DNA from: a virus
Direction: 5' to 3' (one strand)
Length of the DNA stretch: 64,000 bases
IMG/VR virus record: IMGVR_UViG_3300029922_000014
Coordinates: 86,437 to 150,436 of that record
Of this stretch, positions 8,926 to 63,992 are shown piece after piece. The position numbers and the translations under genes were made by a program. Each line of letters starts with the position of its first letter. Position 1 is the first letter of the stretch. The notes under the pieces were generated by a model. That model searched no databases, was not told the origin of the DNA, and saw only the letters and a program-made list of their open reading frames with translations.

Positions 8926-8990
8926 TAATGGCGAGCACGAAGAGGGAAGGCTTAACCGATATCCAGGTGCGTCCGTAGTCGTCACCTGAT

Positions 8991-9003
8991 TGACATCGTG
9001 TCA
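8991..9003. promoter_or_regulatory. Operator-like dyad, gene-end type
   Basis: Perfect TGACATCGTGTCA; the last three bases are the TGA stop of the gene at 9001-9336. It faces the repeat region. Confidence 0.75.
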
Positions 9004-10725: not shown

Positions 10726-10740
10726 GTCAGGTCATCCAAT

Positions 10741-10753
10741 TGACACGGTGTCA
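10741..10753. promoter_or_regulatory. Operator-like dyad, gene-end type
   Basis: TGACACGGTGTCA with both arms perfect. Its last three bases are the TGA stop of the gene at 10751-11140, and it lies 15 nt before the GTG of the next gene. Confidence 0.75.
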
Positions 10754-11257: not shown

Positions 11258-12451
11258 TCACGTATTCACCGTGCAAATAGGTTCCTGCTTCACAGACGGT
11301 AGTTTCGTCCCGGTCTTACGACCAGGGCCAGAGCTTCCATCTCCACAGGCGTTTATTCCCGCGCAACTCGCGGTATGGATATTTTTTGCGGCATTCAGAT
11401 CACGGTCGAGCGTGAAGCCACATGCAGTACAGGAAAAGACCCGCTCTGCGAGCGGAAGGGAATCTTTCTTGTGACCACAGCTTGAACAGGTCTTTGACGA
11501 AGGAAACCAGCGGTCGACGACAAACACCGATTGCGCTTTGTATTCCAGTTGACGTCGAATCTCACTGAATCCCACGTCATTCAAGGCGCGTGAAAGATGG
11601 CGGTTTGCCATCATGCCTTTCACGTTGAGGTCTTCGAGACCGACAGAACCATACTGCTTGGCTATCGCCGTAGTGGTCTTGTGCTGCCAGTCTTTTCTGA
11701 TTTGAGCTATCCGCCAATGCTGACGACTGAGACGAGCAACGGCTTTCTTCCGGTTGCTGGATCCTTTGACTTTGCGAGAGACGAAACGAGAGAGACGCTT
11801 CAAACGTTCGAGAGCAGACTTGAGCGGTTTGGGAGACTGAAAGGTAGTGCCGTCGGAGAGAACCAGAGCAGTCTTCAATCCGAGGTCGATGCCGACAGCG
11901 GGCTTTGACACGATGTCAGTTGGCGGATCGGGAAGTTCGACTTGAACGGAAAGCCACCAGCGTTGACCGACAAAAGACAAAACAGCGGAGAGTGGTTTGC
12001 CGTCGAAGCGGAGTTCTTCGTGGGTATCAACCCAACCAATATTCGGTAGTTTAACAGCTTTACCGGCGAACGAAAATGTTCCAGGTCCGTTGTCGAGACG
12101 TGCTGATTGCTTGGATTTATGTTTGCTCTTGAAGTCGGGCGGGGACATCTTTGGTCCCTTGCGCTTGCCTGAGCAGGAGTCGAAAAAGTTTTGGTAGGCG
12201 GTGCCGAGGTTGATGATCGCCTGCTGAACAACGCGCTTTGGCACATCCAACATCCAAGGGAACTCTTCACGCTTGATCGTATTCAAACTCTTCCGCAACG
12301 ATCCGTCGTTCGGCTTGTACCCAGCGGCAAACTGAGCACGCCAGTGACATAATGCCCAGTTAAAGGCAAAGCGCGCCGCTCCGACGCACTGCCGGAAGAA
12401 TGCTTCCTGCTTTCGCGTGGGGGCAAGCTTGATGATGTGGGCGCGGATCAC
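11258..12451 (-). mobile_element. tnpB: IS1341-type element with TnpB nuclease
   Basis: The product has about 397 residues, the usual TnpB length. The RuvC catalytic residues are all visible: D189 in GIDLGLKT, E273 in GLEDLNVKGM, and D351 in DRDLNAAKNI. A Cys4 zinc ribbon (CSSCG...CTACG, C322-C344) lies between the last two. TnpB is an RNA-guided nuclease whose guide is normally made from the element's right end, here just past the stop at 11258. No TnpA partner is present. The start is taken as the GTG at 12451 (IRAHIIKLAPT); an upstream GTG at 12475 is possible. A dyad lies inside the gene at 11906-11918. Element ends were not resolved. Confidence 0.9.
11906..11918. promoter_or_regulatory. 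Operator-like dyad inside tnpB
   Basis: Perfect TGACACGATGTCA within coding sequence, encoding TDIVS just before the first RuvC motif. The in-frame GTG-TCA could serve as an internal start. Confidence 0.7.
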
Positions 12452-13253: not shown

Positions 13254-13607
13254 TCAATCCTTAACCGTGATGGTCATGTGCCGTCGGCCCCACTGCACAG
13301 CTTCGGCGTGGGTTTTGAATCTGAGGTCGATGTGAACGATTCCGCGCTTGGCATCCTTGCGCATGGCGCCGCCGGTATCATCGACCTTTGCCCAATTGCC
13401 GTTGTTGTAACCGGTGACTTTGATCAGGGTTCCGTAGGGCAGGATGGTCGGGGCTGCGGCGATGCCGGTGGGATGATCGTCGGTATCGACATCGGTTGAG
13501 GTGATGCCGGAGAAGTCTGAACCACAGTAGCCGGTGACGATCGCCTGGAGTTCGACGGCTGGGGCGGTGGCGCACAGGACGAGCAGAGCGACGAGCTTGA
13601 TTGACAC
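13254..13607 (-). CDS. Secreted 3D-domain protein
   Basis: After a short signal peptide (about 16 hydrophobic residues) comes a 3D domain: APTILPYGTLIKVTGY, VDDTGGAM, HIDLRF and AVQWGRRHMTI, with the conserved aspartates in place. This double-psi barrel fold occurs in lytic transglycosylases and resuscitation factors and binds or cleaves peptidoglycan. A role in lysis or cell-wall remodelling is likely but inferred. The start is a GTG that is itself part of the dyad at 13602-13614. Confidence 0.75.
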   Translation of the reverse strand: MSIKLVALLVLCATAPAVELQAIVTGYCGSDFSGITSTDVDTDDHPTGIAAAPTILPYGTLIKVTGYNNGNWAKVDDTGGAMRKDAKRGIVHIDLRFKTHAEAVQWGRRHMTITVKD

Positions 13608-13614
13608 GATGTCA
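13602..13614. promoter_or_regulatory. Operator-like dyad, stop/start junction
   Basis: Perfect TGACACGATGTCA. On the minus strand it supplies the TGA stop of the AAA+ remnant and, 4 nt later, the GTG start of the 3D-domain gene. Confidence 0.8.
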
Positions 13615-13926
13615 GTCCTTCCCGAATCCGCCGGGCTTGTACGCGGCGAGGTTCTTGAAGTGTTCGAGCTTCGGGCTCGTGCCGTGGTTAACGCGGACCA
13701 GCCGGCAGAGTTGCTTCACGTCGCGGCCGGTGGCGCGGGGGAAGGCTTCGACCAGGGACAGCACCGTCGCCTTGGTGAGCTTCATTCCGTAGTGGGTGCT
13801 CAGGATCGACCAGAGGTCTTCCTTGTCCTTGGCGCTATCCGGGACGCCATAGCTGACTTCCGCGATGCAGCGGCTTCGGATGGCGTCGTCGACATCGTCC
13901 CCGCGGACTCTTTTCGTAGTGGTCGT
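13612..13926 (-). pseudogene. AAA+ ATPase C-terminal remnant
   Basis: One open frame of about 104 codons reads TTTKRVRGDDVDDAIRSRC, IAEVSYGVPDSAKDKEDLW and later FPRATGRDVKQLCRLVRVN. This is the sensor 1, arginine-finger (SRC) and sensor 2 (GRDxKQL) region of an AAA+ ATPase. No Walker A or B module exists upstream in any frame, and the frame has no good start before an ATG at about 13782. It is joined out of frame to the gene at 13835-14101, so this looks like a deletion remnant. Confidence 0.6.
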
Positions 13927-15186: not shown

Positions 15187-15284
15187 GGGAGACTCCTTGG
15201 TCCTTTGGACCGCTGGTTGGTTGTTGTACCCGCATCATGGTGCGGACTGACATCGTGTCAATTGCTGTTTTCCGCGTTATGCGG
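15187..15284 (-). promoter_or_regulatory. Composite promoter, dyad and hairpin leader
   Basis: Palindrome CCGCGTTATGCGG (15272-15284), then TTGACA within a perfect dyad (15248-15260), 16 bp, CATGAT. The leader has GGTCC-TTT-GGACC (15199-15211) directly before AAGGAG. Confidence 0.75.
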
Positions 15285-15604: not shown

Positions 15605-15696
15605 TGGATGCTCCTGGTCCATTGGACCGTTGGCGTTATGGCTGCATCCTGACATGGATTGACACGATGTCAATCGAGACTTTCCGCGTAACGCGC
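15605..15696 (-). promoter_or_regulatory. Composite promoter, dyad and hairpin leader
   Basis: CCGCGTAACGCGC (15684-15696), TTGACA in a perfect dyad (15660-15672), 16 bp, CAGGAT. The leader hairpin GGTCC-ATT-GGACC is at 15616-15628, before CAGGAG. Confidence 0.7.
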
Positions 15697-16721: not shown

Positions 16722-19700
16722 TTCTTGCCCATGGTCCCAAGCGACGTCTTCATGCCGGTATGGTGTTCGATGGTGCGGTGCAGGTCGTCGGCGTAGACGC
16801 CGTCCGCGGAATGCTTCACGGTGTACTTGCCGCCGCTGATCTTGCCAAAGTCCACCTTGTAGGTGTCGTCGGGCTTGAGGTGCACCTTGATGTGGTTGAC
16901 GTTCTTGGCGTTCTTGCCGATCTTGAACTGGTAGGATGGCATGCCGGTGCCGGGAACGTGGGTCTCCTTGCCGTCCTCACCTTTGGTAGTGTAGCCCTGC
17001 CCGTGGTCGACCATCATGTTCTTGGCGCCGAGCATGAAGTGCGCCTTGGCACCGATCTGCTTGTGGATCGCGTGCGCCTTCTCCAGGCCTTCCTTGGCGG
17101 CCTTCTCGTTGATGGCTTCGGTAAGGGATTCTTCCTTCTTGCCGAAACCGGGGGCGGCGCGGACGCCGTGCTTCTCGCGAACCTTGGCTCGGGCTTCCGG
17201 GTCCTGCTTGTGGCCCATGTGCCCCTTGTCGGGCGTGCTGCCGCCCCACTTGCCGCTGTTGATGTTCTTGAGGATGTCGGAGTACTTGATCTCCATCTTC
17301 CCCGGCTTGTGGCCATCCTTGATCGCGTAGGTAGAGACGACGAGCGTCGCGCGGTCCTTATCCAGGTCGCGGGACTTGATCGTCCACCAGACGTTCTTGA
17401 TGACTACGGACTTGTTCGGAACGAAGTACTTCCGCAGGTCCTTGTCGTTGAGTTTGCCTTCGGTCAGCGATTCGTTGTGCAGGTGGATGTGGACGTGCTT
17501 GGCCTTGTCCTCGGGGCCTTCGTCTTCGTCGTCGTCGTCTTCATCACCCTTGCTGTTGGCACCGCCTTCCTCTTCTTCTTCGTCCTCTTCGTCGGGAACG
17601 TCGTCGGTACCGGTAGCGCCGGGAGCCGGCGGCGGGACAACGGTCGGGTTGGGCAGTTCGTTGGCGCCCTGCGCACCAGCACGGGTCATCATCTGTTCGC
17701 CCATCTTCGGGACGGAGATGTAGCCGGTGGGGCTGGCCTTCCATTCGTTGGGCTTGAGCCCAAAGCGCTCTTCGATGCGGACTTCCATCGCGTCGATGTC
17801 GCAGTCGGCGCACAGGAGCATATCGTAGTAGGTCTGAACGTCGGCCACGGTGAAGTTCTTGGGATCGACACCCTCCGCCAGGATCTTGGCCTTCGCGTCG
17901 TCGAGCCGCGTCTTGGCTTCCGTGGTCAGGTTCTTGGACAGCCCAACATACAGCTTCAGCCGCGCGGCGGCGGTCTTGGCGTTGGGTGACGATTCCAGGA
18001 GCCCCTTGGCGATCGACGCGGCAGAGCCCTCAAAGAAGTTCTCCGGCGGGGTCCAAGATTCGCCCAGTTGGACGAAGTTCTTGCCCTTCATCGCCTGCAT
18101 CGCGTTGCCCTTGGTCGTGGCGCGCACGCAGGAGACAACCAATTGCCCGTCGGCGTCCATGGTCTGCTGCATCAGCGATTCGGCTTGATCCATGGTCAGA
18201 GCGTTGTTGTTCACCAATTCCCAGCCGTCCTTGGTCTTCTGGCAGATCCAGTAGTCGCAGGAGGCTTTGCCAGCGGCTTCGGTAGTGGCCTTCTTCGCGA
18301 AGCCATGCTCATCGTGGTGGACCTTGTCGAACGTCTTGGCCCGGAGCTTCCCCATGGCTTCGCTGTGATCCTTGGCCTTGATGTATGCGGCGAAGTGCGG
18401 CTTACCGTGAGGGTAGGTCTTCTCGTTGTTTGGACCGGTGTGCGGCGTCAGCGCGTTGTCGATCGTGCGCTCCAATTCGCCCTTGGTCTTCTTGCCCTGG
18501 CCCAGAATGGGCTCATGCATCGTGGTGCCCTTGGCGCCCCGACCGATCACAGGGTAGTGCATGGTTTCGTCGATTGACGCGATGTCAGTGGCCTCAGTGA
18601 TGCTCTTCACATGGACGCGGGAATCGTTGTGGACCGGATCATGCGACTGCACCGACGTCGCAAACATCTCGGCGTGTTTCTTCGCACCGAACTTGAAGGC
18701 GTGATGCTGTTCCTTCGTGTCGCCGCGCGTGCTGGTTCCAACATGCTCACCGGACCGATGACCCATGGCACCGGCGGCCTTCTTCAAATGATCGACCGTG
18801 AACGGCTTGCCCGACGAATGCTTGGCACTGTGGGCCACCAGCACGTAGTGAGCTTCGTCGATGCCTTCGTTGCGGCGCTTGAGCATGTTGCGGGCGGTGC
18901 CGCGCTTGCGCTTGCCGAGCATGCCGTACTTGGACGGGAAGCTGGCACGGACGGGAGCGAAGGAGGCAGAGGCGAATCCGCCTACGGTGCCGGAGCGGGT
19001 CATCTCGTCGATGTAGTCGAGGAATGATCCGGGAAGCTCCACCTCTGCGCCCTCAGCATTGAGGAAGATCAGGTCACCGTTGACGTCTTCCGACATGGAA
19101 CAGGTGTCGCCGGCCGGGGAGATGACGGTCACACCTTCGGTGCCGATGACAAGCTTCCAGGTCTGGTCTGATTCGACGGATTCCTTGACGGAAAAGTCGC
19201 CCATCAGAAAGTTCATGATGTCGACGTGGGCGGCGGTCGAATCGCCATTGTGCTTGGTCAGGATCTTGTCGATCCCACTACGGTAGAGAACCATGTCGCC
19301 TTCGTCGACGTAGCGGAACACATTCTCGTCATCGCGGATGGTCACGGAGACGACGCCGGGTTCGATCTCGACTACTTCCCAGGCCGGCTGCTCCAGCGAT
19401 TCGCGGACCTTGGTCGCGGCGTCAGCGGGCTGTTCGTCGGCGTTGGGGTCCTTGATCTTCTTCGGCGGGACGGGCTGCTTGCCGAGCGGGGTACATTCGA
19501 TGATCGACACATCGGAGACGCGGTCGTTGGCGATGTCGGTGGTGCCGGCGGTCAGGGACAGCTTGTATTTGAGGAACTGTGCTTCCCCCAGCTTGCCGGT
19601 GTCGTCGCGGGTCAGGGCGCCCTCGAAGATGGCGGTGAAGCTCTTGGGGCCGACTACGGTCTCGACGAGCTTCGCGTAGAGCGAGGCGGATTCCTGCATC

Positions 19701-21514: not shown

Positions 21515-21604
21515 GGCAGGCTCCAGGTCCGGGGGACCGTTGGGGTATGGCTGCATCATGGCGGGATTGACACGATGTCAATCGCTGTTTTCCGCGTCAT
21601 GCGG
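21515..21604 (-). promoter_or_regulatory. Composite promoter, dyad and hairpin leader
   Basis: CCGCGTCATGCGG (21592-21604), TTGACA in a perfect dyad (21568-21580), 15 bp, CATGAT. Leader hairpin GGTCC-GGG-GGACC (21526-21538) then GGAG. Confidence 0.8.
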
Positions 21605-25008: not shown

Positions 25009-25099
25009 GGGAGGCTCCTTGGTCCATTGGACCGTTGGTGTGATGAGCGAAGCATATGCGGACTGACATCGTGTCAATGCCTCTTTTCCGCATAGCGCG
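25009..25099 (-). promoter_or_regulatory. Composite promoter, dyad and hairpin leader
   Basis: CCGCATAGCGCG (25088-25099), TTGACA in a perfect dyad (25064-25076), 15 bp, TATGCT. Leader hairpin GGTCC-ATT-GGACC (25021-25033) then AAGGAG. Confidence 0.8.
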
Positions 25100-26497: not shown

Positions 26498-26587
26498 TTT
26501 TGACTCCTTGGTCCTTTGGACCGTTGGTGTGATGAGCAAAGCGTATACAGACTGACACGATGTCAATCAAGTTTCTGCATAGCGCGG
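26498..26587 (-). promoter_or_regulatory. Composite promoter, dyad and hairpin leader
   Basis: CTGCATAGCGCGG (26575-26587), TTGACA in a perfect dyad (26553-26565), 15 bp, TACGCT. Leader hairpin GGTCC-TTT-GGACC (26510-26522) then AAGGAG. Confidence 0.8.
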
Positions 26588-27142: not shown

Positions 27143-27233
27143 ATAAGACTCCTGGTCCAGGGGACCGCTGGTGATGGGGGGTCATCATGCACGGACTGAC
27201 ACGATGTCAATCGCTGTTTTCCGCGTCACGCGG
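27143..27233 (-). promoter_or_regulatory. Composite promoter, dyad and hairpin leader
   Basis: CCGCGTCACGCGG (27221-27233), TTGACA in a perfect dyad (27197-27209), 15 bp, CATGAT. Leader hairpin GGTCC-AGG-GGACC (27154-27166) then AGGAG. Confidence 0.8.
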
Positions 27234-30812: not shown

Positions 30813-30848
30813 GGCTCAGAGCGTAGTAACCGTGAAGCATGCGGCAAT

Positions 30849-30861
30849 TGACATCGTGTCA
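30849..30861. promoter_or_regulatory. Operator-like dyad before portal gene
   Basis: Perfect TGACATCGTGTCA in the 56-bp gap between terL and portal genes. A CTGACA-N15-CATGCT arrangement could be a weaker promoter of the same class. Confidence 0.7.
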
Positions 30862-30868
30862 GTCCATC

Positions 30869-36491: not shown

Positions 36492-37492
36492 GACAGCCCC
36501 TTCGCTCTCTCCAGCAGTTCATTGCCGAGTTTGGACAGGTGCCCACCCGGATCAGGCAGATCGCGGTATTTCAGATAGGCGGTGATGATGTCGCCGTGGG
36601 TGTGGCTGGTGCGGATGTCGATCCGCGGCGGGGCTCCTGGCGCTTCGGAATAGCTCGACCTGACGATGCGGGCATGTTCGACCTTGGCCTTGATCTTCAG
36701 GTAGGTCGCGTGGTCCGGAGCGTCGATCCAGATGAAGTCGTTTTCGCCAACCTCCGGGACCGCGAAGGAGTCGGTGATCTTATAGAACCGCGGGCTGACG
36801 GTGTTCTCGACGAATGACAACGTGTCAGTCTCGGTATCGAGGATGCGCACCCCGCGCTTCCCGCCGCAGTCACCAAAGTCCAATTGCATCGGGGAGCCGA
36901 TGTAGTGGATGTTGTCGGTATCCTTCGGTGCGTGCACGTCACCCAGCAGAACACGCTTCCAGGACCGGGGCTTGAGCGCTTCGATCGGCAGAGTTTTGGC
37001 GGACTTGTGGACGGCGCCGTCGATCAGGGCATGCGCCAGCAGGTAGTCGCAATGCGATTCCTCGGCGGCCTGGGCGATGTCTTCGGCCAGTTGGGTGTTG
37101 TCGTCCGTCCAGGGCATGAGCATGAACGGCGGCATCATGAATGGCTGATCAATCACCTCACCGCTGCCGAGAAAAATCTGCATCGAATTGATGCCGGGCG
37201 TACGCAGGTAAGAATCGTGGTTCCCGACGATGAAGCACAGATCGACGCTTTGCGATGTTTCATGCACGACGCGGCAGAGGCGGTCCAGCACCGACATGTC
37301 GATGCTGGTGCGGGAGTCGATGAAGTCCCCGACCACGAAGATACGCTCGCACTTCTGGTCGATCGCGATTTTGGTCATCCACCGCCAGCAGTCGAGCATA
37401 TCGGTCAAACGCGTCGAAACGCCGTCGACGCCGATCGTCGAAAGACCGGCGTAGGTATCGAACTGCCAGTCGGCGGTGAGCAGAACTTTCAC
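36488..37492 (-). CDS. Mre11/SbcD-like nuclease
   Basis: The product has 334 residues from the GTG that overlaps the upstream stop (GTGA). Calcineurin-type metallophosphoesterase motifs appear in order: TADWQFD, VVGDFIDSR, VGNHDSY, LAHALIDG and LGDVHAP. It is the nuclease partner of the Rad50-like protein. A dyad with perfect arms lies inside at 36815-36827. Confidence 0.9.
   Translation of the reverse strand: MKVLLTADWQFDTYAGLSTIGVDGVSTRLTDMLDCWRWMTKIAIDQKCERIFVVGDFIDSRTSIDMSVLDRLCRVVHETSQSVDLCFIVGNHDSYLRTPGINSMQIFLGSGEVIDQPFMMPPFMLMPWTDDNTQLAEDIAQAAEESHCDYLLAHALIDGAVHKSAKTLPIEALKPRSWKRVLLGDVHAPKDTDNIHYIGSPMQLDFGDCGGKRGVRILDTETDTLSFVENTVSPRFYKITDSFAVPEVGENDFIWIDAPDHATYLKIKAKVEHARIVRSSYSEAPGAPPRIDIRTSHTHGDIITAYLKYRDLPDPGGHLSKLGNELLERAKGLS
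36815..36827. promoter_or_regulatory. Dyad inside the Mre11-like gene
   Basis: TGACAACGTGTCA: perfect arms but a different central triplet (ACG). It encodes DTLS with an in-frame TTG-TCA. Confidence 0.5.
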
Positions 37493-40627: not shown

Positions 40628-40677
40628 ATGATAGTTGAACTGACACGGTGTCAATCATTGTTTTCCGCGTAGTGCGG
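40628..40677 (-). promoter_or_regulatory. Composite promoter with dyad
   Basis: CCGCGTAGTGCGG (40665-40677), TTGACA in a dyad with perfect arms (40641-40653), 15 bp, TATCAT (5 of 6 to TATAAT). There is no leader hairpin. It drives the 301-residue unknown and probably the nucleotide-metabolism run. Confidence 0.75.
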
Positions 40678-41708: not shown

Positions 41709-42899
41709 TCAGGTCGCCGCAGCGGCCTCGGCCGCTTCCGCACCTTCCGTGGCAGCCGGAGCCGGCGGGGTGTACTTCTTCGCCTCGGCCTTGACGGCGT
41801 TGGTGAAGAGGGCCACGACCTTCTTGTCCTGGGCGGACTCGGGGTTGTGGGCCGGCAGGACCGGGGTTTCGAGGGTGCCGCGGTCCCAGAAGGCGAAGGC
41901 GAGGTTGCCGCGCATCTCGTGGAACTCGCTGGTCCCTTCCTCGTTGGTGCCGAGGGCCTGGATGTAGTAGTAGGCGATCTTGCTGATCATCTCCTGCTTG
42001 GCCTTGCTGGACTTCCAGGTGACCAGATTCGCCGCGCGGTCGGCCCCGGTGCGCCGGTTGTTGGCCTTGCCGTCGGTGGTCGTGGTGTCGGCGCCGGCCG
42101 CCGCCTGCGCGGTGCGGGCGATTTCCTTGGCGGCCTGACGGATCTTCGGCGCGGTGACCGCGTCCTTGAGGCGTTCGGCCACCGCGGTGCGGGTGGTCTC
42201 GTCGAGCTTGGACAGTTCCAGGGCGCTGGCGACCGGCAAGGAGCCGTCGGCCACGCGGGTCTGGATGTCGGCCGGGGCCTCGACGATGTTCAGGCAGCGA
42301 CGGACCTTGCCGATGTTGTGGCCGGTTTCCTTGGCGATGTTCTCGGGGGTCCAGTCGTTCGCCTTGCCGAGGTCACGGAAGACGTTGCCGAGTTCGATCG
42401 GGTTGAGGGCGACGCGGAGACCTTCATTGTTTTCCGCGATGGCGATGGCCTTCGCCTTGGCCTTGTTTTCGGGCGCGTCGTCGAGGTCGGTGCGGACGGT
42501 GGTGTTGATGGTTTCCCAGCCCAATTTCTGGGCGGCCAGGAGACGCCGATGGCCGGCGACGACATAGAACTTGCCGACGGTTTTCGGATGCGGACGGACG
42601 ACGATGTTCTGCAACTGCCCGTGGCGCTTCATGTTGTCCGCGAGTTCTTCGACCGCCGCCTCGTCGATGGTCTTGCGCGGGTTGAAGTTGGCTTCGACCG
42701 CGATCAGCGCGACGGGGAGGAGGGTGGCGAGCGTTTTCTTCGCGCTGCCGCCGCCCTTAACGTCGCCGGATTCGATGTTGACGCCGTTGACGGTGACTGC
42801 GACCGGCGCGGAGGCTTCGGCTTTCGCGGGGGCGGGGGTGGGTTTCTTCGGGGCTGCCGCAGGGGCGGCGGTGGTGGTTTCGTCCTTGGCCTTGGCCAT
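41709..42899 (-). CDS. ParB/KorB-like DNA-binding protein
   Basis: The product has 396 residues. After an Ala/Pro/Lys linker, a ParB N-terminal domain is clear: FNPRKTIDEAAVEELADNM, GQLQNIVVRPH, FYVVAGHRRLLAAQKLG. A ParB-type helix-turn-helix follows (WTPENIAKETGHNIGKVRRC, then ADIQTRVADGSLPVASALE). Such proteins partition DNA or, like KorB of RK2, act as global repressors on many dispersed palindromes. Its own promoter carries a perfect dyad, which would allow autoregulation. The C-terminal part has no dimerisation domain I recognise. Confidence 0.85.
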   Translation of the reverse strand: MAKAKDETTTAAPAAAPKKPTPAPAKAEASAPVAVTVNGVNIESGDVKGGGSAKKTLATLLPVALIAVEANFNPRKTIDEAAVEELADNMKRHGQLQNIVVRPHPKTVGKFYVVAGHRRLLAAQKLGWETINTTVRTDLDDAPENKAKAKAIAIAENNEGLRVALNPIELGNVFRDLGKANDWTPENIAKETGHNIGKVRRCLNIVEAPADIQTRVADGSLPVASALELSKLDETTRTAVAERLKDAVTAPKIRQAAKEIARTAQAAAGADTTTTDGKANNRRTGADRAANLVTWKSSKAKQEMISKIAYYYIQALGTNEEGTSEFHEMRGNLAFAFWDRGTLETPVLPAHNPESAQDKKVVALFTNAVKAEAKKYTPPAPAATEGAEAAEAAAAT

Positions 42900-42969
42900 G
42901 GCGGACTCCTTTGCCGGTGTTCCGGCGACTTTGGGCTGTTGCAGCGGGTTTGCTGCGTTGAGGACGTGG

Positions 42970-43018
42970 ACTGTACGCGGATTGACATCGTGTCAATCGG
43001 ATTTGCCGCGTTACGCGG
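42970..43018 (-). promoter_or_regulatory. Composite promoter with dyad for the ParB-like gene
   Basis: GCCGCGTTACGCGG (about 43006-43018), TTGACA in a perfect dyad (42983-42995), 15 bp, TACAGT. The recA stop TAA lies within the first palindrome. Confidence 0.8.
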
Positions 43019-44186
43019 AATCAGCGCTCGCAGCCTCTTCGTTTTCTTCGGAACCTTCTTCTCCGCGCGTTGGCTTCTCGTCGCCCGTCGCTGCGGCGTA
43101 CTTCTCCATGAGGTCAGCGAACGCTTCGTCCGCGCCTTTGCGGAAACTGGGGTCGTTTTTGTAGCGGTGCATCCAGTCGGAACGGGTGAATCCGAGCGGT
43201 GACCACTTGGCTTTGTATTCTCCGCCGCCTGATTTGAACTGCTTCGCATCGAAGAGGTGCTGGAAGATCGTCATCTCTTGAGACGGTCCGTAGTTGAAGT
43301 CCAGAACCCAGTTCGAGTGGCGCAGCGGCGGCGCGCACTTGTTCTTCTTGGTGATGCACCGGATCAGGAACCCCAGGGCAGGTCCACTGGTGCCAACCTT
43401 CAGCGTGGCGATCTTCACGCAGCGAACACGCAAAGACGCAGCGTAGCGTACGGCGGCGCCGCCAGGATTGACCTTGTTGTCACCGAATCCGGAGAATCCT
43501 CCGACCTTGTCGCGCTCCTGATTCACAAACAGCATGTGCGCGCGAACCTTCGGGATGCGCAGGAACATGCGGCGGCACCCTTTGCCCATCGCACGCGCGG
43601 TTTCTCCGACGGTCGCCTTTGAGGTGCTGGTGGCGAGACGTTCAGCGCGTGGTTGTGCGGCTGCAATCGAATCCCAAACGATCAGCGTCGGCGCATCCGG
43701 CTTGGTCGATTCGATATTCTCCAGCGCTTCCCAGATGAGGTCCCATCCTTCTTCAATGTCCATGGGCTGGACGTAGACCAACGCATCGGGGTTGATGCCA
43801 AGCGTCGCCATCTTCTCCAGATCGAGCGAGTTTTCGTAGTCGAGCAGGATCGGAACGCCCCCAACCTCCTGGCACGCTTTGATCGCGCGGTGGGTGATGG
43901 CTGACTTTCCCGCAGCTTCCTGTCCGTACACCTCGGAACAGCGACCAACGGGCCACCCTCCACCAAGGATGCGGTCGAGGTCTGGAAAACCAGTCGGGAT
44001 CCACTCCTCTACGGCTGCGGTGACGCTGTCGTCGGAGAGCAATGAAACGGTGCCGTCTGACTTTTCGCCAATCTTCTTTCGCAGCCCTTTGACCAAGGAC
44101 TTTGCGAGCGCGGTTTGGCTTGCGCTGATGACTACTTGATTGCTGGCGTCATCGCCTTCGGCTTCGATCGCCTCCGGAACTGACAC
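43011..44186 (-). CDS. recA: RecA-like recombinase
   Basis: A RecA core is clear: Walker A GQEAAGKS (canonical GPESSGKT), LIVWDSIAA as Walker B, and FVNQERDKVGGFSGFGDNK as the L1/L2 region. I place the start at the GTG inside the dyad (MSVPEAIEAEGDD, 391 aa) with TGAGGA upstream, which removes a 116-bp overlap with the next gene; a longer ATG start at 44315 gives 434 residues. It should carry out strand exchange with the SSB and mediator genes upstream. The C terminus is highly acidic, as in bacterial RecA. Confidence 0.9.
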   Translation of the reverse strand: MSVPEAIEAEGDDASNQVVISASQTALAKSLVKGLRKKIGEKSDGTVSLLSDDSVTAAVEEWIPTGFPDLDRILGGGWPVGRCSEVYGQEAAGKSAITHRAIKACQEVGGVPILLDYENSLDLEKMATLGINPDALVYVQPMDIEEGWDLIWEALENIESTKPDAPTLIVWDSIAAAQPRAERLATSTSKATVGETARAMGKGCRRMFLRIPKVRAHMLFVNQERDKVGGFSGFGDNKVNPGGAAVRYAASLRVRCVKIATLKVGTSGPALGFLIRCITKKNKCAPPLRHSNWVLDFNYGPSQEMTIFQHLFDAKQFKSGGGEYKAKWSPLGFTRSDWMHRYKNDPSFRKGADEAFADLMEKYAAATGDEKPTRGEEGSEENEEAASADSA

Positions 44187-44193
44187 GATGTCA
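44181..44193. promoter_or_regulatory. Operator-like dyad at the recA start
   Basis: Perfect TGACACGATGTCA; its in-frame GTG-TCA is the preferred recA start codon. Confidence 0.75.
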
Positions 44194-44199
44194 GTGTCC

Positions 44200-49400: not shown

Positions 49401-50478
49401 GCTGACGGTCGAACTTTTCGTTCTGTCCGATCCAGTCGATCTCCGCCTGGAACAGATCGCGCAGGAGTTCGATCAATTCCGCACGCTCATGCTCCAGTGG
49501 GCCGCCAACACACCACGGGCTTTCGGAATGATCGAATGGGACCACATAGGCGGTATTGTCGCCGTTGGAAAAGCTGAAGCACACGAGTTTTGGGAACTTG
49601 TCCTGGTATATTTGCAATGATCCGGTTTCGGTATCGACGGAAACCGGGCGTCCCCAGGTCTTGAACTTCTCGAAGGTCTCCTTCACAACTGACATCGTGT
49701 CAATCGTGATATAGGTTCCGAACCCGGGTTTGCTCAGGTCCTCGCCAGCGAACAATCCCAGCGCCACGGTGATGGCGTTGGTGAAGCGGGTCATCTCATG
49801 ATCAAAGCGGAGCACGTAGGCCGGGTGCAGGCAGGCCACCACAGGGATGCCTTCGAGTTCCGGATGGCTGCCCTTGAGCGGTTGCCCGTTGAGGTGGCTG
49901 ATCCCAGAGGTATCCGTCAGAAACTCCAGCGGCGTGTTGCCCAACGCCAGGATGACCTTCGGCTTTCGGTCGACGATCTGCTGGATGAGTTGATGCGAAC
50001 AGCTTTGGACTTCCGTCTTGGCCGGCGAGCGATTCATCGGTGGCCGGCAGTTGACGACGTTGGCAAATCCGATCCGTAGTTCACCGACCTGCGCCTGCTC
50101 TGCACACATGTCGATCGCTTCACGCAAGAGCTTGCCTGAGCGCCCAACAAACGGCAGCCCTTGCCGGTCTTCGTCCTGGCCGGGAGCTTCACCAACACAC
50201 AGGATGTCCACCTCGGTCTGGTCTTCGACCACGTTCCGGGACTGGATCAGATGCCCTTCCTTGGCTGCTGCGCGGATCTTTATTGCATCGCGCTGGTAGA
50301 CGGCCTCGAAGTCAGGAAAGTCTTCGTGAAAGGCTGCCAGGGGGCAATGCAGACACCCCGATTTGAGCACGCCAGTGCATGGTGGAACAAGCGGTCTGGC
50401 GCCTGGGCGGAGTTCGGCTTTCCCGCGCGTGTCGATGAGCGCCTGCGCAACGCGATCTGCAAGACGACGAACAGCCAT
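46465..50478 (-). CDS. UDG-DNA polymerase A fusion with intein
   Basis: The precursor has 1337 residues. Residues 30-245 are a family-4 uracil-DNA glycosylase-like domain: CTGVLKSGCLHC, VGEAPGQDEDRQGLPFVG, NVVNCRPPMNR, LHPAYVLR. The 3'-5' exonuclease begins at VSVDTETGS (about 279). The polymerase has motif A CDFSQIELRI (715-724), the O-helix KRTNFG/SLYG (776-781 and 1106-1109) and motif C LTVHDSIMFD. Phage SPO1 polymerase is a known UDG-PolA fusion. An intein splits the O-helix, so splicing is needed for activity. A perfect dyad with in-frame ATG (49690-49702) lies between the two domains. Confidence 0.9.
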   Translation of the reverse strand: MAVRRLADRVAQALIDTRGKAELRPGARPLVPPCTGVLKSGCLHCPLAAFHEDFPDFEAVYQRDAIKIRAAAKEGHLIQSRNVVEDQTEVDILCVGEAPGQDEDRQGLPFVGRSGKLLREAIDMCAEQAQVGELRIGFANVVNCRPPMNRSPAKTEVQSCSHQLIQQIVDRKPKVILALGNTPLEFLTDTSGISHLNGQPLKGSHPELEGIPVVACLHPAYVLRFDHEMTRFTNAITVALGLFAGEDLSKPGFGTYITIDTMSVVKETFEKFKTWGRPVSVDTETGSLQIYQDKFPKLVCFSFSNGDNTAYVVPFDHSESPWCVGGPLEHERAELIELLRDLFQAEIDWIGQNEKFDRQHIREAIGIELPIFKTDTMTTHLVINEQRGTHGLDKLAYQYTGMGGYDRPLEDYKAAHPEADPKKGGSYANIPGSILFTYAAMDADVTWRVAPLLFQEPEYRDNPRLRILAEQFFPHLSAALADMETAGAKIDPEAVDRIDKRLTEEIERLDKAIQEDASVKQYVDEKMQREAEKDVATGKRRRKPFAFEFNPNSGKQVGEIFFGLLGYPPGELTETGSKNLRYRLRQRQDECRANGTRFPKMDDMRREAIEAQEWSYFTTDAETMHSFERDHDSELATLILSSREAIKLQGTFINALKTMCDKFGLLHSSFWISGTATGRLSSSDPNLQNISNNPRWNIKTCYVSRFGDDGILLNCDFSQIELRIAACLFDEPKMKQVYLERGDLHTLTASIVSGVPVEEFAKLDKDTKKKMRTSAKRTNFGCVPLDTEALTRDGWRGYGQIKVGDEVLGMENGVTKWVPVTGIVYHPVAKVVTLATKNFSMETTEDHRWMAEKRVVVAGKRKMVPCIVSTADIKHEHRIFLSAPIQSTCLLPISVYEAALVAWLFTDGHFFFSELTGAASQGRDGWRQKHFGGVYQSKPAGVAALKELFSHFPHTLHVRPVTDIHEFRLRSGYTHDLWKRAELHSITLEEFVLRLGTAELRAFVEAAFQAEGHLDHKGTRIVTQNRGPTADALKLAIFLAGYFPREVESDTYKDNVSLKLRYGKPVVTGQRLKKTGERETAVWCLQTATSNWVMRHRNQIMVTGNSLYGSEAPGIRSALKKDGIFVSLEDCEKFLENFFKGFPRLRAGMDELERKVTKLGYLDSFTGHRRRVPEVGSSDPSLVSRAVRQSINFPIQSGAAIMTLMALVLITRALKNGGFKSKLILTVHDSIMFDCVLDEYLAVAILAKDIMENLPALSDEVLPGLDWNWIDIPIIAEVEAGLNWGQMQEFEPADLQDGKTSDQPLIGLNEKGKMDILRKPVNEDELGQCLVFKMKKK
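47164..48135 (-). mobile_element. Intein in the polymerase O-helix
   Basis: The intein spans residues 782-1105 (324 aa), from CVPLDTEALTRDG to MVTGN, with Ser as +1 residue. Block B (METTEDHRWM) is present. The penultimate residue is Gly instead of His, an atypical C-terminal end. LAGLIDADG-like motifs are degraded (LVAWLFTDGHF; FVEAAFQAEGHL), so the homing function may be decaying. Removal restores NFG-SLYG, the exact polymerase consensus. Confidence 0.9.
49690..49702. promoter_or_regulatory. Operator-like dyad inside the UDG-PolA gene
   Basis: Perfect TGACATCGTGTCA at the UDG/exonuclease domain boundary, encoding IDTMSV. The in-frame ATG could start a polymerase-only product, although no strong ribosome site is seen just upstream. 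Confidence 0.75.
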
Positions 50479-53372: not shown

Positions 53373-53390
53373 GAAGTTCCGTGTGGGAAC

Positions 53391-53403
53391 TGACACGATG
53401 TCA
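53391..53403. promoter_or_regulatory. Operator-like dyad upstream of DUF932 promoter
   Basis: Perfect TGACACGATGTCA, 18 bp upstream of the CCGCGTCATGCGG palindrome and 2 bp after the primase stop. Confidence 0.8.
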
Positions 53404-53405
53404 GT

Positions 53406-55877: not shown

Positions 55878-56786
55878 TCACCACGTGATGCCGAGGTCGA
55901 TTGAAGGGGTTGCCATCAGACGCGCCGAACGCGGAGACAGATCCTTCAACAGGTTTGCGAACTGTTTGTCGTCCCAGGTCTTAAACCCGATGAGCGCAGG
56001 AAACATGGGATTATATCCAGAAGCAACAGCAACGGCAGCACGAAGACGTGCAAGGTGCGCCACGTGTCCGATGGTCGGGTAGGTCTGACGCAGGCGTTCG
56101 AGGAGCCGGTTCGCCGCCACGTTCCGCGGTCCGAAAATGGCTTGGTATTCATCGGAATGGTCAGCATAGACCGCCAGTGGTTGACCATCACCATCGGTCA
56201 CGGAGCGACACAGCAGCCACAGCCGCTCCTCTTCCTCCTCCGCCATGCGATTGACGAGTCGGTCGAGTTCGGTGTTGCCGAGGTTGCGCCCGTCGGGATA
56301 GGCGAAGGTCCGCTGGCAAGTCAGCAGGTAGGACTGCCAGCGTCCGATCGCCGCCTTCTCCACGAGCACGATGGTCTGGAAGTCCGAAAACCTCCCCACT
56401 TCCTGGGATTGGATGTACGTGCGCCTTGCGTGCATCTGCACGGCGATCCACGCCACCGGTGACGCCCCGTATTTCGTGCACATGCGGGAGACCGTGGCGA
56501 GGGCATCATGTTCGGTGACCGGTTCGCAGCGGTCGTATCCGAAAATCTCCCGATGGAGTTGGTGATAGACCTGATGCAAATCGTCGTTGTCGGACGGCCA
56601 GACGAAGACCTTGGCTTCCTGCTCTGCAAGCATTTCTGACAGGCTTTTTCGATTCGTCCAGGTCTCCTGGATTTTCGCACACAGCACCCGGGCATGACAA
56701 CGATCGCAGGCGTCTGGGGCGTTTCCAGAGCCGTAGCAGGCCGGACGTCCGCGAGGGACGGGTGCTGGTTGGCGGTCAATTGACAT
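55878..56786 (-). CDS. Hypothetical replication-region protein, 302 aa
   Basis: The start is the ATG inside the dyad at 56781-56793. A Cys-rich head (CYGSGNAPDACDRCHARVLC) could bind zinc or iron-sulphur, followed by helical sequence. Position between the helicase genes suggests a replication role; no family is recognised. Confidence 0.6.
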   Translation of the reverse strand: MSIDRQPAPVPRGRPACYGSGNAPDACDRCHARVLCAKIQETWTNRKSLSEMLAEQEAKVFVWPSDNDDLHQVYHQLHREIFGYDRCEPVTEHDALATVSRMCTKYGASPVAWIAVQMHARRTYIQSQEVGRFSDFQTIVLVEKAAIGRWQSYLLTCQRTFAYPDGRNLGNTELDRLVNRMAEEEEERLWLLCRSVTDGDGQPLAVYADHSDEYQAIFGPRNVAANRLLERLRQTYPTIGHVAHLARLRAAVAVASGYNPMFPALIGFKTWDDKQFANLLKDLSPRSARLMATPSIDLGITW

Positions 56787-56793
56787 CGTGTCA
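56781..56793. promoter_or_regulatory. Operator-like dyad, stop/start junction
   Basis: Perfect TGACATCGTGTCA. On the minus strand, it gives the TGA stop of the UvsW-like gene and, 4 nt later, the ATG of the next gene. Confidence 0.8.
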
Positions 56794-58572
56794 GTCCTTG
56801 CGGGAACGCGAACGACGGCGCCGGTTGTCATCATGAAGCTTTTGCATCGCATCCTCCCAACGCAGAAACGGCCACAGCAGCGAATCCCGATTCTCAGGGA
56901 CCGCGGGCCAAGCGTAGAGCGGAAACACCTCATACCCTTCGCCCTCATACACACGGACCCGATCCAGTCCGTGCTGTGTCAAGGTCTCGTGCGAGGTGGG
57001 GATGATGTCCACGACCCACACTTCGTTGTCGCCGTCTTTCTTGCGTCTCGTACCGCGGCCGACGCGTTGAATCGCGTTGGTGTTGACGCTGACGCCTTCG
57101 GCCATGACCAGTGCTTCGATGCCTTCAACATCAGAGCCTTCGTCCAGGACGTTGTTCGCGATCAAGCACTTCGCCTTGCGTTCGGTGAAAGCCTTCTTGG
57201 CAGCCTCGCGATCCTCCTGTTTCGTCGCACCCCAGATCGCCACGGTGCTGATGCCTTGCGCCTCGGCCATGTCCTTCAACCGCTTCCACTGCTCTTTCTT
57301 GCGGGTGAACACCACGGTGCGCTTGCCATGATCGGTCAGCCACGCCACCACCCGGATCACCGCCCGGTTGTGGTAGTCGTTCTCCACGATCCCGAGGCGG
57401 TATGCGTCGGCATACGGCAGGTCGATCTCCTTGGTGAAGGAACGCTTCCCGATGAAGTATTCCTTCTGGCCTTTCGGAAGCGTCGGACCACTGACAGCGT
57501 CGGAAAGGATCGCAATGATCTTGGGCTTCGCCGCTGCACCGATTTCGATCAGTTCGTTCAGTTCAACGTTGCTGATGATGTCACCGGTAGCACCCATCAT
57601 GGTGGTGTCGTCGATCGCAGATTCTTTCAGAGGCGAACCACTGAACCCGAACCTGCGAATAGCTTTTGAGCGCAGACAAAACTCGGACCATGACTCCGAA
57701 CTGGCGTGATGTACTTCATCAAGAGCGAGAACTTGCCGCGTTTCCATCAATTGACGGATCACGGGATCGTACGGCACTTGTTCTATCCGCGTCCGCGTCA
57801 TTGGCTTGCCATCCGGACGTAGCACGGGTTTGCCGTTCGCCCCTTTGAGCGGTTCGCGAACCTTCTTCTCGCGGTCCTGAAATTGGATCAACGTCTGCGC
57901 GGTGACGATCGTGATGTCACCCATCTCCCGATTCTTGACACCATTTTTCTTCTGGCCGCCGCCGCAGATCCCGACGGTTGGCTCCGTTTCACTGATAAAG
58001 TATTTTGCGCAGCGCGCAGCAAACTGATGGACCAGATCAGCCTTGGGAACGACGACCAGTGTCTGCCATCCTAATTCCTCCCACAGGTACTTCGCAGCCA
58101 CGATGGCACATTCCGTTTTGCCGGCGCCTGTACTGGCCTTAACGATCCCACGTTGATTGGTCAGAATCGCCCGGATGGCATCCATCTGATCGGGGCGCAG
58201 GGTGATACCCGGCAGGTATTGATCCGTCAGCCGGGAAAGATCGACCTGATGGAAGTCCCCGAGTTCCTGCACGGTGACGGGCACAGCGCAGTTCGAGTAG
58301 TAACGCGTGACGCGGCTGACGAGTCCAGCAGGAAAGGTGAAGATACTCGGATCGCGACGGTCTTTACGATAAAAGCGGTGGAATCCATCCCAGCGCCCTT
58401 CCTTGAACGCCGGAGAAAAAAAGTGATTCGGGTGGATGATGCGGAGACATTCGTCGAGGTCAGCCTGGAGCGCACCACGGATTCGTGCGTATGCGCCATC
58501 AACAACGATGGAAATATCACTGCGAATTGCAGTAGTAGAATCCCGTACTTCGTTGCTATTTGCAGTATTCAT
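56791..58572 (-). CDS. UvsW-like superfamily 2 helicase
   Basis: The product has 593 residues. Motifs: Walker A STGAGKTE (147-154), DEVHH (285-289), SGSP motif III (GFSGSPLKES), and the C-terminal IANNVLDEGSDV and QRVGRGTRRK. The N-terminal domain (HPNHFFSPAFKEGRWDG) resembles the T4 UvsW DNA-binding part. It should remodel recombination intermediates and R-loops. Confidence 0.9.
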   Translation of the reverse strand: MNTANSNEVRDSTTAIRSDISIVVDGAYARIRGALQADLDECLRIIHPNHFFSPAFKEGRWDGFHRFYRKDRRDPSIFTFPAGLVSRVTRYYSNCAVPVTVQELGDFHQVDLSRLTDQYLPGITLRPDQMDAIRAILTNQRGIVKASTGAGKTECAIVAAKYLWEELGWQTLVVVPKADLVHQFAARCAKYFISETEPTVGICGGGQKKNGVKNREMGDITIVTAQTLIQFQDREKKVREPLKGANGKPVLRPDGKPMTRTRIEQVPYDPVIRQLMETRQVLALDEVHHASSESWSEFCLRSKAIRRFGFSGSPLKESAIDDTTMMGATGDIISNVELNELIEIGAAAKPKIIAILSDAVSGPTLPKGQKEYFIGKRSFTKEIDLPYADAYRLGIVENDYHNRAVIRVVAWLTDHGKRTVVFTRKKEQWKRLKDMAEAQGISTVAIWGATKQEDREAAKKAFTERKAKCLIANNVLDEGSDVEGIEALVMAEGVSVNTNAIQRVGRGTRRKKDGDNEVWVVDIIPTSHETLTQHGLDRVRVYEGEGYEVFPLYAWPAVPENRDSLLWPFLRWEDAMQKLHDDNRRRRSRSRKD

Positions 58573-59451: not shown

Positions 59452-59493
59452 GGCCACAGACTACGGGCGGGAAACCGCCGGGGCAAGCTGGAC

Positions 59494-59506
59494 TGACACG
59501 ATGTCA
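59494..59506. promoter_or_regulatory. Operator-like dyad, gene-end type
   Basis: Perfect TGACACGATGTCA; the last three bases are the TGA stop of the gene at 59504-59761. Confidence 0.75.
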
Positions 59507-59761
59507 GTTGTCAGGCGCGGTCCTCGCGCGCGCTGTCAGTGCCCGCTGTTCCGCATCCCACAAAGCCATTTGATGCACGATCATCTGTTCACAGTGATCT
59601 GCAATCGCCACGACGGTTTCTGGATCAGTGCTGCCCTCAAGCCGCTGAAGCGCATGCAGCAGACCGCAGGTGCAGATGTGACCAAGCGCATACACGTGGC
59701 AGTCCCCGTCGTGGGTTGGCCCAGTAGTCTTGCGATACCAGCGTGTGAGGTCGTCGATCAA
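59504..59761 (-). CDS. Hypothetical protein with CHVYALGHICTC motif
   Basis: The product has 85 residues with a Cys/His cluster near residue 22 and a helical rest. The only start is a TTG at 59761, next to 11-bp tandem repeats that disrupt the upstream frame, so the original start may have been lost. Confidence 0.5.
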   Translation of the reverse strand: MIDDLTRWYRKTTGPTHDGDCHVYALGHICTCGLLHALQRLEGSTDPETVVAIADHCEQMIVHQMALWDAEQRALTARARTAPDN

Positions 59762-60163: not shown

Positions 60164-60184
60164 GGGGCGACTACGGTTTCCGAT

Positions 60185-60197
60185 TGACATCGTGTCA
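60185..60197. promoter_or_regulatory. Operator-like dyad in gene-free region
   Basis: Perfect TGACATCGTGTCA, about 20 bp upstream of the TTGACT promoter at 60158. Confidence 0.8.
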
Positions 60198-60889
60198 ATC
60201 CACGGGGAGGGGGCCGGCGGCATCGGGGTGGGGAGACTTCGAGCTTCTGGCTTCGGTCTTCACACTTCGACATGCGAGCTTCGAGTGTGGTTTTCGAGAG
60301 GGCTTTTGCTTTGGGTTTCGACGGCTTTTGTCGGTTGTATTCGGCCGTTTCTCAAAAGTATTTTGTATTCGCAGCACATGCGCCGAACGGAGTGAGTGCG
60401 CTTTTTCTTTGTCTTTTTTTATAGGAAGAGAGGGAAGGATGAGGGAGGTATACGTAGTATACCCCCCGAAGACTGAAGAGGGGATGCAAGGGGAGAGGGG
60501 GAGGAACCTGCCCTTTTTTTCTATTTCTTTTGTTCGCCGTCGTCGACCCTACCGGTCAATCGTCGAACCGATCATCGAATCAATCGCCGCCCGAACCGAC
60601 TACCGCTTCCCCGCCGCACCCCGAAACCGATGATCACCCCGGCGTCGAACCGGTCATCGAATCCGCTGAACCGACACCGAACACCAGCGAACGGCCAAAA
60701 CAGTTGAGGCTCTGAATAGGCTGTTTTTAGCCTCTGGAATTGCTGATGGTTCTCGTGGGTACCCCCCGGTGTCTAAAGTCGATTAAACAGCCTCCCAGGC
60801 TTAGTTTCAGGCCACTCTGGAAGCGCCAGTCTGGCTCAAAAATACCAAAAACCGTCAATCTTCTGCTAACCCCATTAGCAGTTGGCGAT

Positions 60890-60902
60890 TGACATCGTGT
60901 TA
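60890..60902. promoter_or_regulatory. Degenerate dyad after RecQ-like gene
   Basis: TGACATCGTGTTA, one arm mismatch, downstream of the terminator at 60915-60946. Confidence 0.55.
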
Positions 60903-60914
60903 ATCCAAAACAGA

Positions 60915-63026: not shown

Positions 63027-63029
63027 GAT

Positions 63030-63042
63030 TGACGCCGTGTCA
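63030..63042. promoter_or_regulatory. Degenerate dyad, gene-end type
   Basis: TGACGCCGTGTCA, one arm mismatch; the last three bases are the TGA stop of the SGNH gene. Confidence 0.55.
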
Positions 63043-63702
63043 GTTCGGGGTGCTGAGGATGAGGGTCACGACGCGGTCATATCCCGCTTCGTTGAGGTGG
63101 ATGCCAGCCGGTTGGCTGTATTGCGGATCGCACCAGCCCGACGGCAGCACCACCGCTGGCCATAGGTTGAGCCACTGCGCGTTGCGCCCGTTGGCCACGT
63201 CTTGCAGTTGCGCCGTCAGGGTGCCAAAGTCCGCCGGTCCCAAGTTGTTTCCCGTCGCCCACGGATACTGAGGGGCGAGCGGCATCGGGGACAGGCAGAT
63301 GACCGTCGTTGCGCCCTTTGCGCGTACGGTGTCGATGAGTGTTCCATACTCGGCCATCGTCACATCGCGAGGCGTTCTGGTCTGAAGATCGTTGATTCCG
63401 CACCAAAGGTACACCGTCGGCGGGAGGCTGGGCTGCGCCTGCACGCGAGCAAGGACCATGGCGACGGTATCGCCTCCGACGCCAAGATTCTCTGCCCCTG
63501 GGAGCCACGTTTGCCACGCCCCCAGATAGACATAGCTGTCACCGATGACCGCCTTGGTCGTCGGGTTGGGAACCGAGTCATCGTGAGCGTCATAGGTCGT
63601 CGGGAACGCCGCTGCCCCGGGAGCGTGGTACGGTTCGTGATGGAGTCCACCGTATCCGCAGCCGGCGAGCATGATGATGGCGATGGTGAGGATGAAGCGC
63701 AT
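63040..63702 (-). CDS. SGNH/GDSL hydrolase lipoprotein
   Basis: The product has 220 residues. It starts with a lipoprotein signal (IAIIMLAGC, lipobox Cys15). The SGNH blocks are in order: VIGDSYV (nucleophile Ser56), NLGVGGDT (Gly), LWCGINDL (Asn104) and the D...H pair (WCDP, GIHLNEAGY, H202). It should be an outer-membrane or periplasmic esterase, acting on O-acetyl groups, lipids or surface glycans. It could alter the host surface during infection. Confidence 0.85.
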   Translation of the reverse strand: MRFILTIAIIMLAGCGYGGLHHEPYHAPGAAAFPTTYDAHDDSVPNPTTKAVIGDSYVYLGAWQTWLPGAENLGVGGDTVAMVLARVQAQPSLPPTVYLWCGINDLQTRTPRDVTMAEYGTLIDTVRAKGATTVICLSPMPLAPQYPWATGNNLGPADFGTLTAQLQDVANGRNAQWLNLWPAVVLPSGWCDPQYSQPAGIHLNEAGYDRVVTLILSTPN

Positions 63703-63902: not shown

Positions 63903-63992
63903 GGCTGACTCCGGGTCCGTGGGACCATTGGGGTATGGCGGCCAGCGTACCCGGATTGACACGATGTCAATCCTATTTCCTGCATGACGCGG
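63903..63992 (-). promoter_or_regulatory. Composite promoter, dyad and hairpin leader
   Basis: CTGCATGACGCGG (63980-63992), TTGACA in a perfect dyad (63957-63969), 15 bp, TACGCT. Leader hairpin GGTCC-GTG-GGACC (63914-63926) then CGGAG. Confidence 0.8.

What the first reader, a model, noticed from the sequence alone, without database searches (positions are those of the whole stretch)
41709..43018. A ParB/KorB-like protein is a candidate master regulator of the dyad sites
The protein has a ParB N-terminal domain and ParB-type HTH. Its own promoter carries a perfect dyad, which would permit autoregulation. KorB of RK2 is a ParB-family global repressor acting on a dozen dispersed 13-bp palindromes, a close formal parallel. 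No other classic repressor is encoded in this window. Alternatively the sites could be parS-like centromeres.
Basis: inference. Interest (0 to 1): 0.75.

Follow-up and report, generated by a model that had tools for sequence, protein, structure and literature searches.

The report
Orphan phage ParB and even dyad array
A large bacterial virus carries about 54 copies of one short mirror-image DNA site, spaced unusually evenly over its whole genome, together with one ParB-type DNA-binding protein but no ParA partner; a very distant relative keeps both, so this protein is the best candidate to bind the sites and silence or organise the viral genome, although binding itself is untested.

Summary
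Window 41709-42899(-) encodes a 396-aa protein with ParB_N and HTH_ParB domains, and a perfect ATTGACA-NNN-TGTCAAT dyad lies 82 bp upstream (42981-42997), overlapping the -35. That promoter dyad is weak evidence alone, because 13 promoters carry the same composite element. The complete 150.4-kb genome has about 54 sites (under 1 expected): 13 in promoters and 41 not. They are far more evenly spaced than chance (CV 0.54 versus about 1), and non-promoter sites fill the gaps between promoters. I found one diverged relative (95 kb, proteins about 30-50% identical). It has about 42 sites of a related motif, the same even spacing, and a 41%-identical ParB in the same position; its closest site pair sits just upstream of parB. 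No ParA was found. MerR, LuxR and Xre regulators elsewhere in the genome have no counterpart in the relative's sequenced part, which leaves ParB as the only clearly conserved sequence-specific candidate. Best reading: a KorB-like, ParA-less ParB is the global binder of a stoperator-like array. A classical centromere is disfavoured. Binding and silencing are inferred, not shown. A two-residue insertion in the CTP-binding Box III leaves clamp activity open.

The parts
41709..42899 (-). parB-like CDS, 396 aa (P0001)
   Evidence: 41% identical syntenic homolog in relative phage B
42477..42713 (-). ParB_N (nucleotide-binding) domain, residues 63-141; Box II GHRR at residues 116-119; Box III ENNEGLR at 156-162 lies just downstream
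   Evidence: Pfam; alignment
42156..42407 (-). HTH_ParB DNA-binding domain, residues 165-248
   Evidence: Pfam; model pLDDT about 71-86 here, best fold matches ParB/Noc/KorB DNA-binding domains
41781..42044 (-). C-terminal helical region, residues 286-373, conserved in phage B but without a Pfam hit
42981..42997 (-). dyad 1 in the parB promoter (perfect; sense reading ATTGACACGATGTCAAT, contains -35 TTGACA)
42970..42975 (-). candidate -10 TACAGT, 15 bp after TTGACA
43003..43021 (-). dyad 2 (ATTCCGCGTAACGCGGCAA) 5 bp upstream of dyad 1
2362..2378 (.). dyad 1, non-promoter
7207..7223 (.). dyad 1, non-promoter, 22 bp before a gene start
8989..9005 (.). dyad 1, non-promoter
10739..10755 (.). dyad 1, non-promoter, 22 bp before a gene start
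11904..11920 (.). dyad 1 inside a TnpB/OrfB-like gene
13600..13616 (.). dyad 1, overlaps a gene start
15246..15262 (.). dyad 1, promoter class
15658..15674 (.). dyad 1, promoter class
18573..18589 (.). dyad 1, deep intragenic
21566..21582 (.). dyad 1, promoter class
25062..25078 (.). dyad 1, promoter class
26551..26567 (.). dyad 1, promoter class; the orthologous gene in phage B also has a site
27195..27211 (.). dyad 1, promoter class
30847..30863 (.). dyad 1 between terminase and portal-like genes, non-promoter
36813..36829 (.). weaker dyad 1, deep intragenic
40639..40655 (.). dyad 1, promoter class
44179..44195 (.). dyad 1, deep intragenic in recA
49688..49704 (.). dyad 1, deep intragenic in DNA polymerase
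53389..53405 (.). dyad 1, non-promoter
56779..56795 (.). dyad 1, non-promoter
59492..59508 (.). dyad 1, non-promoter
60183..60199 (.). dyad 1, perfect
60888..60904 (.). dyad 1
63028..63044 (.). weaker dyad 1
63955..63971 (.). dyad 1, promoter class, in the 127-bp terminal repeat (same site as record position 82)

Best explanation
The protein is an orphan (ParA-less) phage ParB that most likely binds the 17-bp dyad through its ParB-type HTH as a dimer, and acts as a KorB-like global regulator of the phage genome. At the 13 composite promoters, parB's own included, the dyad contains the -35 hexamer, so binding there would block RNA polymerase. At the other roughly 41 sites, in gene junctions and inside genes, bound protein (or a clamp loaded there and sliding) would act as evenly spaced roadblocks, like mycobacteriophage stoperators, so that no stretch longer than about 6 kb is free of a site. 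Shown: the protein family, sites, promoter anatomy, even spacing, conservation of protein plus sites in a diverged phage, and absence of the ParA families tested. Inferred: that ParB is the binder, that the effect is silencing, and that a CTP clamp is involved.
For: ParB_N plus HTH_ParB; DNA-binding domain fold closest to KorB bound to operator (1r71, TM-score by target up to 0.76, rmsd 2.6; the model is only locally confident). Diverged phage B, found only through the promoter motif, has about 42 sites TTRACA-NNN-TGTYAA versus 0.1 expected and a syntenic 41%-identical ParB between recA and the 5'-3' exonuclease. In B the closest site pair of the record (117 bp) lies just upstream of parB. A's MerR, LuxR and Xre proteins have no B homolog in its 95 kb. 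In A the dyad carries the -35 with a -10 about 15 bp later at 13 promoters. The array is over-regular: A CV 0.54 versus 0.97 (P<0.0002), B 0.586 (P 0.001 or less); non-promoter sites fill gaps left by promoters (P<1e-4; rotation null P 0.005). No ParA families. KorB is a CTP clamp silencing promoters up to 1.5 kb away (PMC11790492).
Against: No binding data. Only one informative relative, and it is an incomplete 95-kb record, so A's other regulators could have homologs in its missing part. Box III of the CTP site has a two-residue insertion (ENNEGLR; ENSEDGR in B) against ENxxR in planctomycete plasmid ParBs, and Box II is GHRR rather than GERR in A, so CTP clamping is uncertain. KorB alone represses weakly and needs KorA (PMC11790492); no KorA equivalent was identified. 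SP-beta's dispersed element turned out to be bound by a recombinase-like protein (PMC10516654), a warning against picking the obvious candidate.
Confidence: 0.52

Rival explanations
1. Another phage protein (Xre, LuxR/GerE, MerR, WYL or an unannotated repressor) binds the dyads as a stoperator-type immunity repressor; ParB has a separate role in replication or DNA handling.
For: MerR L005:3384-3956, LuxR L005:13000-13209 and Xre L005:15005-15565 exist; the LuxR and Xre genes also have dyads at their starts; a 17-bp odd-centred dyad also suits Xre repressors (own knowledge); ParB sits in the replication cluster.
Against: None of the three has a homolog in phage B's 95 kb, while sites and ParB are kept.
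Confidence: 0.28
2. The ParB-bound array is architectural: it loads clamps evenly to compact, protect, segregate or package phage DNA, with little effect on transcription.
For: Even spacing regardless of gene boundaries, including deep intragenic sites; site positions turn over between A and B while density persists; no transcriptional partner identified.
Against: Strong enrichment upstream of genes (A 27 observed versus 3.9 expected; B 22 versus 4.2); the -35 is built into the dyad at 13 promoters; stoperators in phage Trixie are also fairly even (CV 0.60, P 0.047), so evenness is compatible with silencing.
Confidence: 0.13
3. The sites are a parS-like centromere for partitioning a plasmid-like prophage.
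For: ParB family; no integrase or resolvase found in A, so any lysogeny would be extrachromosomal.
Against: No ParA by two families, with all 14 control genomes positive; no LG-R/K-GL ParA-binding motif in the sequence; sites are spread genome-wide instead of clustered.
Confidence: 0.05
4. The dyad acts as an RNA hairpin in mRNA.
For: A 7-bp stem with a 3-nt loop, sometimes covering the start codon.
Against: In the sense strand the arm changes break the RNA stem (C.A, 18 sites) more often than they keep it (U.G, 11 sites) in A; 13 sites lie at -35, where they would not be transcribed from that promoter.
Confidence: 0.02

Closest known systems
KorB of plasmid RK2 (ParB-family CTP clamp and global repressor; PMC11790492)
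   Same: ParB_N plus HTH; palindromic operators next to promoters and elsewhere; possible autoregulation; DNA-binding domain fold match 1r71.
   Different: No ParA partner gene or KorA equivalent identified; different 17-bp 7-3-7 motif; about 54 evenly spaced sites in 150 kb; Box III insertion; C-terminal region without a Pfam match.
Stoperators and immunity repressor of Cluster A mycobacteriophages (PMC6550527, PMC9283540)
   Same: Dozens of sites over a phage genome, many in short gene junctions, orientation bias relative to transcription, fairly even spacing.
   Different: Stoperators are asymmetric 13-bp sites bound by a monomeric non-ParB repressor; here the site is palindromic and often contains the -35.
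SPBRE and MrpR of prophage SP-beta (PMC10516654)
   Same: A repeated phage element in promoters bound by one master repressor.
   Different: MrpR is a recombinase-like protein; about 10 promoter sites.
ParABS partition (chromosomal ParB, P1 ParB)
   Same: ParB_N plus HTH domains and palindromic sites.
   Different: No ParA, no clustered parS, no ParA-binding motif.

Membership tests
ParB superfamily (ParB_N plus HTH_ParB) | ParB_N nucleotide-binding domain followed by the ParB HTH | tested here: met
   Pfam hits over cut-off; PDB hits to ParB/Noc
ParB superfamily (CTP clamp) | Box I, II, III motifs for CTP | tested here: inconclusive
   Boxes I and II recognisable (GxRR kept); Box III has a two-residue insertion in A and B; CTP binding is not testable here
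KorB-type global repressor | binds many dispersed palindromes | not testable with these tools
   Sites exist; binding not tested
KorB-type global repressor | palindromes lie at promoters, own promoter included | tested here: met
   13 composite promoters with dyad plus -10, parB among them; B parB has two sites upstream
KorB-type global repressor | partner KorA binding next to core promoters | tested here: inconclusive
   Dyad 2 sits 4-6 bp upstream of dyad 1 but no binder was identified
ParABS partition | ParA ATPase encoded | tested here: not met
   PF13614 absent from A; PF01656 absent from A and B; controls positive
ParABS partition | few clustered parS sites | tested here: not met
   About 54 sites spread over 150 kb
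Stoperator array | dozens of repressor sites in short intergenic gaps over the genome | tested here: met
   Upstream enrichment 27 versus 3.9 expected, even spacing; Trixie control
Stoperator array | asymmetric site with one orientation relative to transcription | tested here: not met
   The site is palindromic; a partial bias exists (20 C..A versus 3 T..G among non-promoter sites)
Stoperator array | bound repressor stops elongation | not testable with these tools
   needs a transcription assay

The most novel reading that the evidence does not exclude
A phage lineage has turned an orphan ParB clamp into a whole-genome silencer or chromatin-like coat: evenly spaced loading sites every 2-3 kb, maintained by selection on spacing rather than on individual positions, combining promoter occlusion at dyads that double as -35 elements with roadblocks or clamp coverage elsewhere.
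Probability: 0.3. Interest if true: 0.82.

Novelty: new variant of a known kind. Interest (0 to 1): 0.62.

Why it matters
Orphan phage ParB proteins are common and mostly unexplained. Here is a case with a concrete, predicted, testable target set: about 54 sites in one phage and about 42 in a diverged one. It would extend the KorB model of ParB as a regulator from plasmids to phages, and offers a way to ask why such arrays are evenly spaced.

Tried and rejected
Relatives: single-protein scans of IMG/VR with ParB and terminase gave nothing but an identical 18.6-kb fragment; the exact-dyad scan gave single, chance-like hits apart from that fragment. Alignment scans with ParB, terminase and polymerase added only phage B and a 23.6-kb terminase relative C (2 sites, no ParB, apparently truncated on the parB side; uninformative). 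GTDB genomes with the ParB alignment: none. Composite promoter scans of IMG/VR and GTDB: only A, B and unrelated single-hit sequences. RNA hairpin: rejected by arm substitutions. Centromere: rejected on ParA and site distribution. Intragenic sites concentrated in long genes: not significant. Structure: whole-protein AlphaFold model poor (pLDDT 55, two-row alignment), usable only for the HTH region. Records NC_001335, Z18946 and AF271693 not held; Trixie used as the stoperator control.

Full report
OBSERVATION. The window is the last 64 kb of a 150,436-bp IMG/VR phage record. Its first and last 127 bases are identical, so the genome is very likely complete. The ORF 41709-42899(-) encodes 396 aa with ParB_N and HTH_ParB domains and is the only ParB_N protein of the record. 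A perfect dyad ATTGACATCGTGTCAAT lies at 42981-42997, 82 bp upstream of the ATG. In the window, TTGACANNNTGTCAA with at most 2 mismatches occurs 26 times versus 2.4 expected. In the whole genome, 47 sites have at most one mismatch to TTRACANNNTGTYAA versus 0.4 expected; 54 fit the tighter 17-bp form with at most one mismatch.

PROMOTERS AND NON-PROMOTER SITES. Nearly all genes run on the minus strand. Read in the sense direction, the sites fall into two classes. Thirteen sites have dyad 2 (TTTCCGCRTNAYGCGGAAA) ending 4-6 bp upstream, all keep TTGACA as a -35, and mostly have a TAYGNT-like -10 about 15 bp after it; the parB promoter is one. The other 41 lack that arrangement. The left arm is TTGACA in 13 of the 14 sites first scored as promoters (13 of 13 after dropping one spurious hit) but in only 12 of 40 others (Fisher P 7e-5). 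The dyad core is therefore a shared binding motif that doubles as a -35 in promoters. In non-promoter sites the CTGACA arm faces upstream 20 times against 3, a bias reminiscent of stoperator orientation. The perfect dyad at parB is thus not special: it permits autoregulation but does not show it.

ARRAY. Sites are enriched just upstream of genes (27 observed, 3.9 expected), but 7-11 are deep inside genes. The array is much more regular than chance: gap CV 0.525-0.54 versus 0.95-0.97 under uniform or gene-start nulls (0 of 5000 simulations), largest gap about 5.5-6 kb versus about 12 kb expected. With the 13 promoter sites held fixed, the remaining 41 fill their gaps (0 of 10,000 random placements as even; rotating the block gives P 0.005). 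The stoperators of mycobacteriophage Trixie, scanned as a control with the consensus from memory, are also somewhat regular (CV 0.60, P 0.047 at one mismatch; not at two), so evenness alone does not exclude silencing.

RELATIVE. A promoter-composite pattern scan of IMG/VR found one diverged relative, phage B, IMGVR_UViG_3300020152_000020, 95 kb. Terminase is 51%, polymerase 49% and many other proteins 30-50% identical, largely in the same order. B has 42 sites (0.1 expected) of a related motif with another spacer (TTG/CAA) and a G/A change in one arm, the same even spacing (CV 0.586, P 0.001 or less), and a ParB 41% identical over 368 residues in the same place, between recA and the 5'-3' exonuclease. 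Two B sites lie in front of parB, 117 bp apart, the closest pair in the record. Six of 32 ortholog pairs have a site in both phages, parB among them, while intragenic sites sit at different positions: the array is kept, individual sites turn over.

WHO BINDS. Outside the window A encodes MerR-, LuxR/GerE- and Xre-type HTH proteins; none has a homolog in B's 95 kb. The shared DNA-binding proteins with a recognisable family are ParB, two HU/IHF-like proteins (not expected to read a 17-bp dyad) and an HNH-like protein. B is incomplete, so this is supporting, not decisive. The window also has a WYL-domain protein (58646-59110). No ParA (PF13614 in A, PF01656 in A and B), no tyrosine integrase in A, no serine recombinase in A or B, and no sigma region 2 in A, though B has one.

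PROTEIN. Closest ParBs outside the pair are those of planctomycete plasmids, 33-34%, a weak host hint. The HTH region of the model (pLDDT about 71-86) matches DNA-binding domains of KorB (1r71, TM by target up to 0.76), ParB (6s6h, 0.70) and Noc (6y93, 0.69). Box III carries a two-residue insertion in both phages relative to ENxxR; PMC12704722 notes that Box III is often divergent in orphan ParBs. The C-terminal region is conserved between A and B but has no Pfam match.

MECHANISM. Shown: protein, sites, promoter anatomy, even array, conserved pairing with ParB, absence of the ParA families tested. Inferred: ParB binds the dyads, occludes -35 at promoters, and acts at the other sites as roadblock or sliding clamp, as KorB does up to 1.5 kb away with KorA (PMC11790492). 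I put about 0.65 on ParB being the binder (the two ParB-binding readings taken together) and about 0.5 on a global-silencing role. The SP-beta case, where the element was bound by a recombinase-like protein (PMC10516654), is the main caution.

VERDICT. The evenly spaced genome-wide array is the more surprising result. New variant of a known kind (KorB-like or stoperator-like).

Noticed in passing
window 43003-43021 and about 12 other promoters: Second dyad TTTCCGCRTNAYGCGGAAA placed 4-6 bp upstream of dyad 1 in 13 promoters; its core CGCRTNAYGCG recurs in phage B, sometimes looking like a terminator stem. Binder unknown; possibly a KorA-like partner site.
   Followed up: partly
window 15199, 15616, 21526, 25021, 26510, 27154, 63914: Third inverted repeat GGTCC-N3-GGACC just upstream of the ribosome-binding site of promoter-class genes (8 matches up to 1 mismatch versus 2.7 expected); could be an mRNA hairpin.
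   Followed up: no
window 46465-50478: DNA polymerase A fused to an N-terminal uracil-DNA-glycosylase domain, with an extra insertion of about 320 aa (residues about 782-1106, likely an intein) that phage B's polymerase lacks.
   Followed up: partly
L002 1-127 and window 63874-64000: Exact 127-bp terminal repeat of the record, suggesting a complete, circularly mapping genome.
   Followed up: yes
L031:12206-13225: Phage B encodes a sigma-70-like protein (regions 2 and 4); no sigma region 2 was found in A.
   Followed up: partly
window 11258-12475: TnpB/OrfB-IS605 family gene with a dyad inside it.
   Followed up: no
window 58646-59110: WYL-domain protein without a recognised HTH, a possible additional regulator.
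   Followed up: no
window 27226-27738 and 33688-34089: Two HU/IHF-like proteins on either side of the terminase and portal genes, both with counterparts in phage B.
   Followed up: partly
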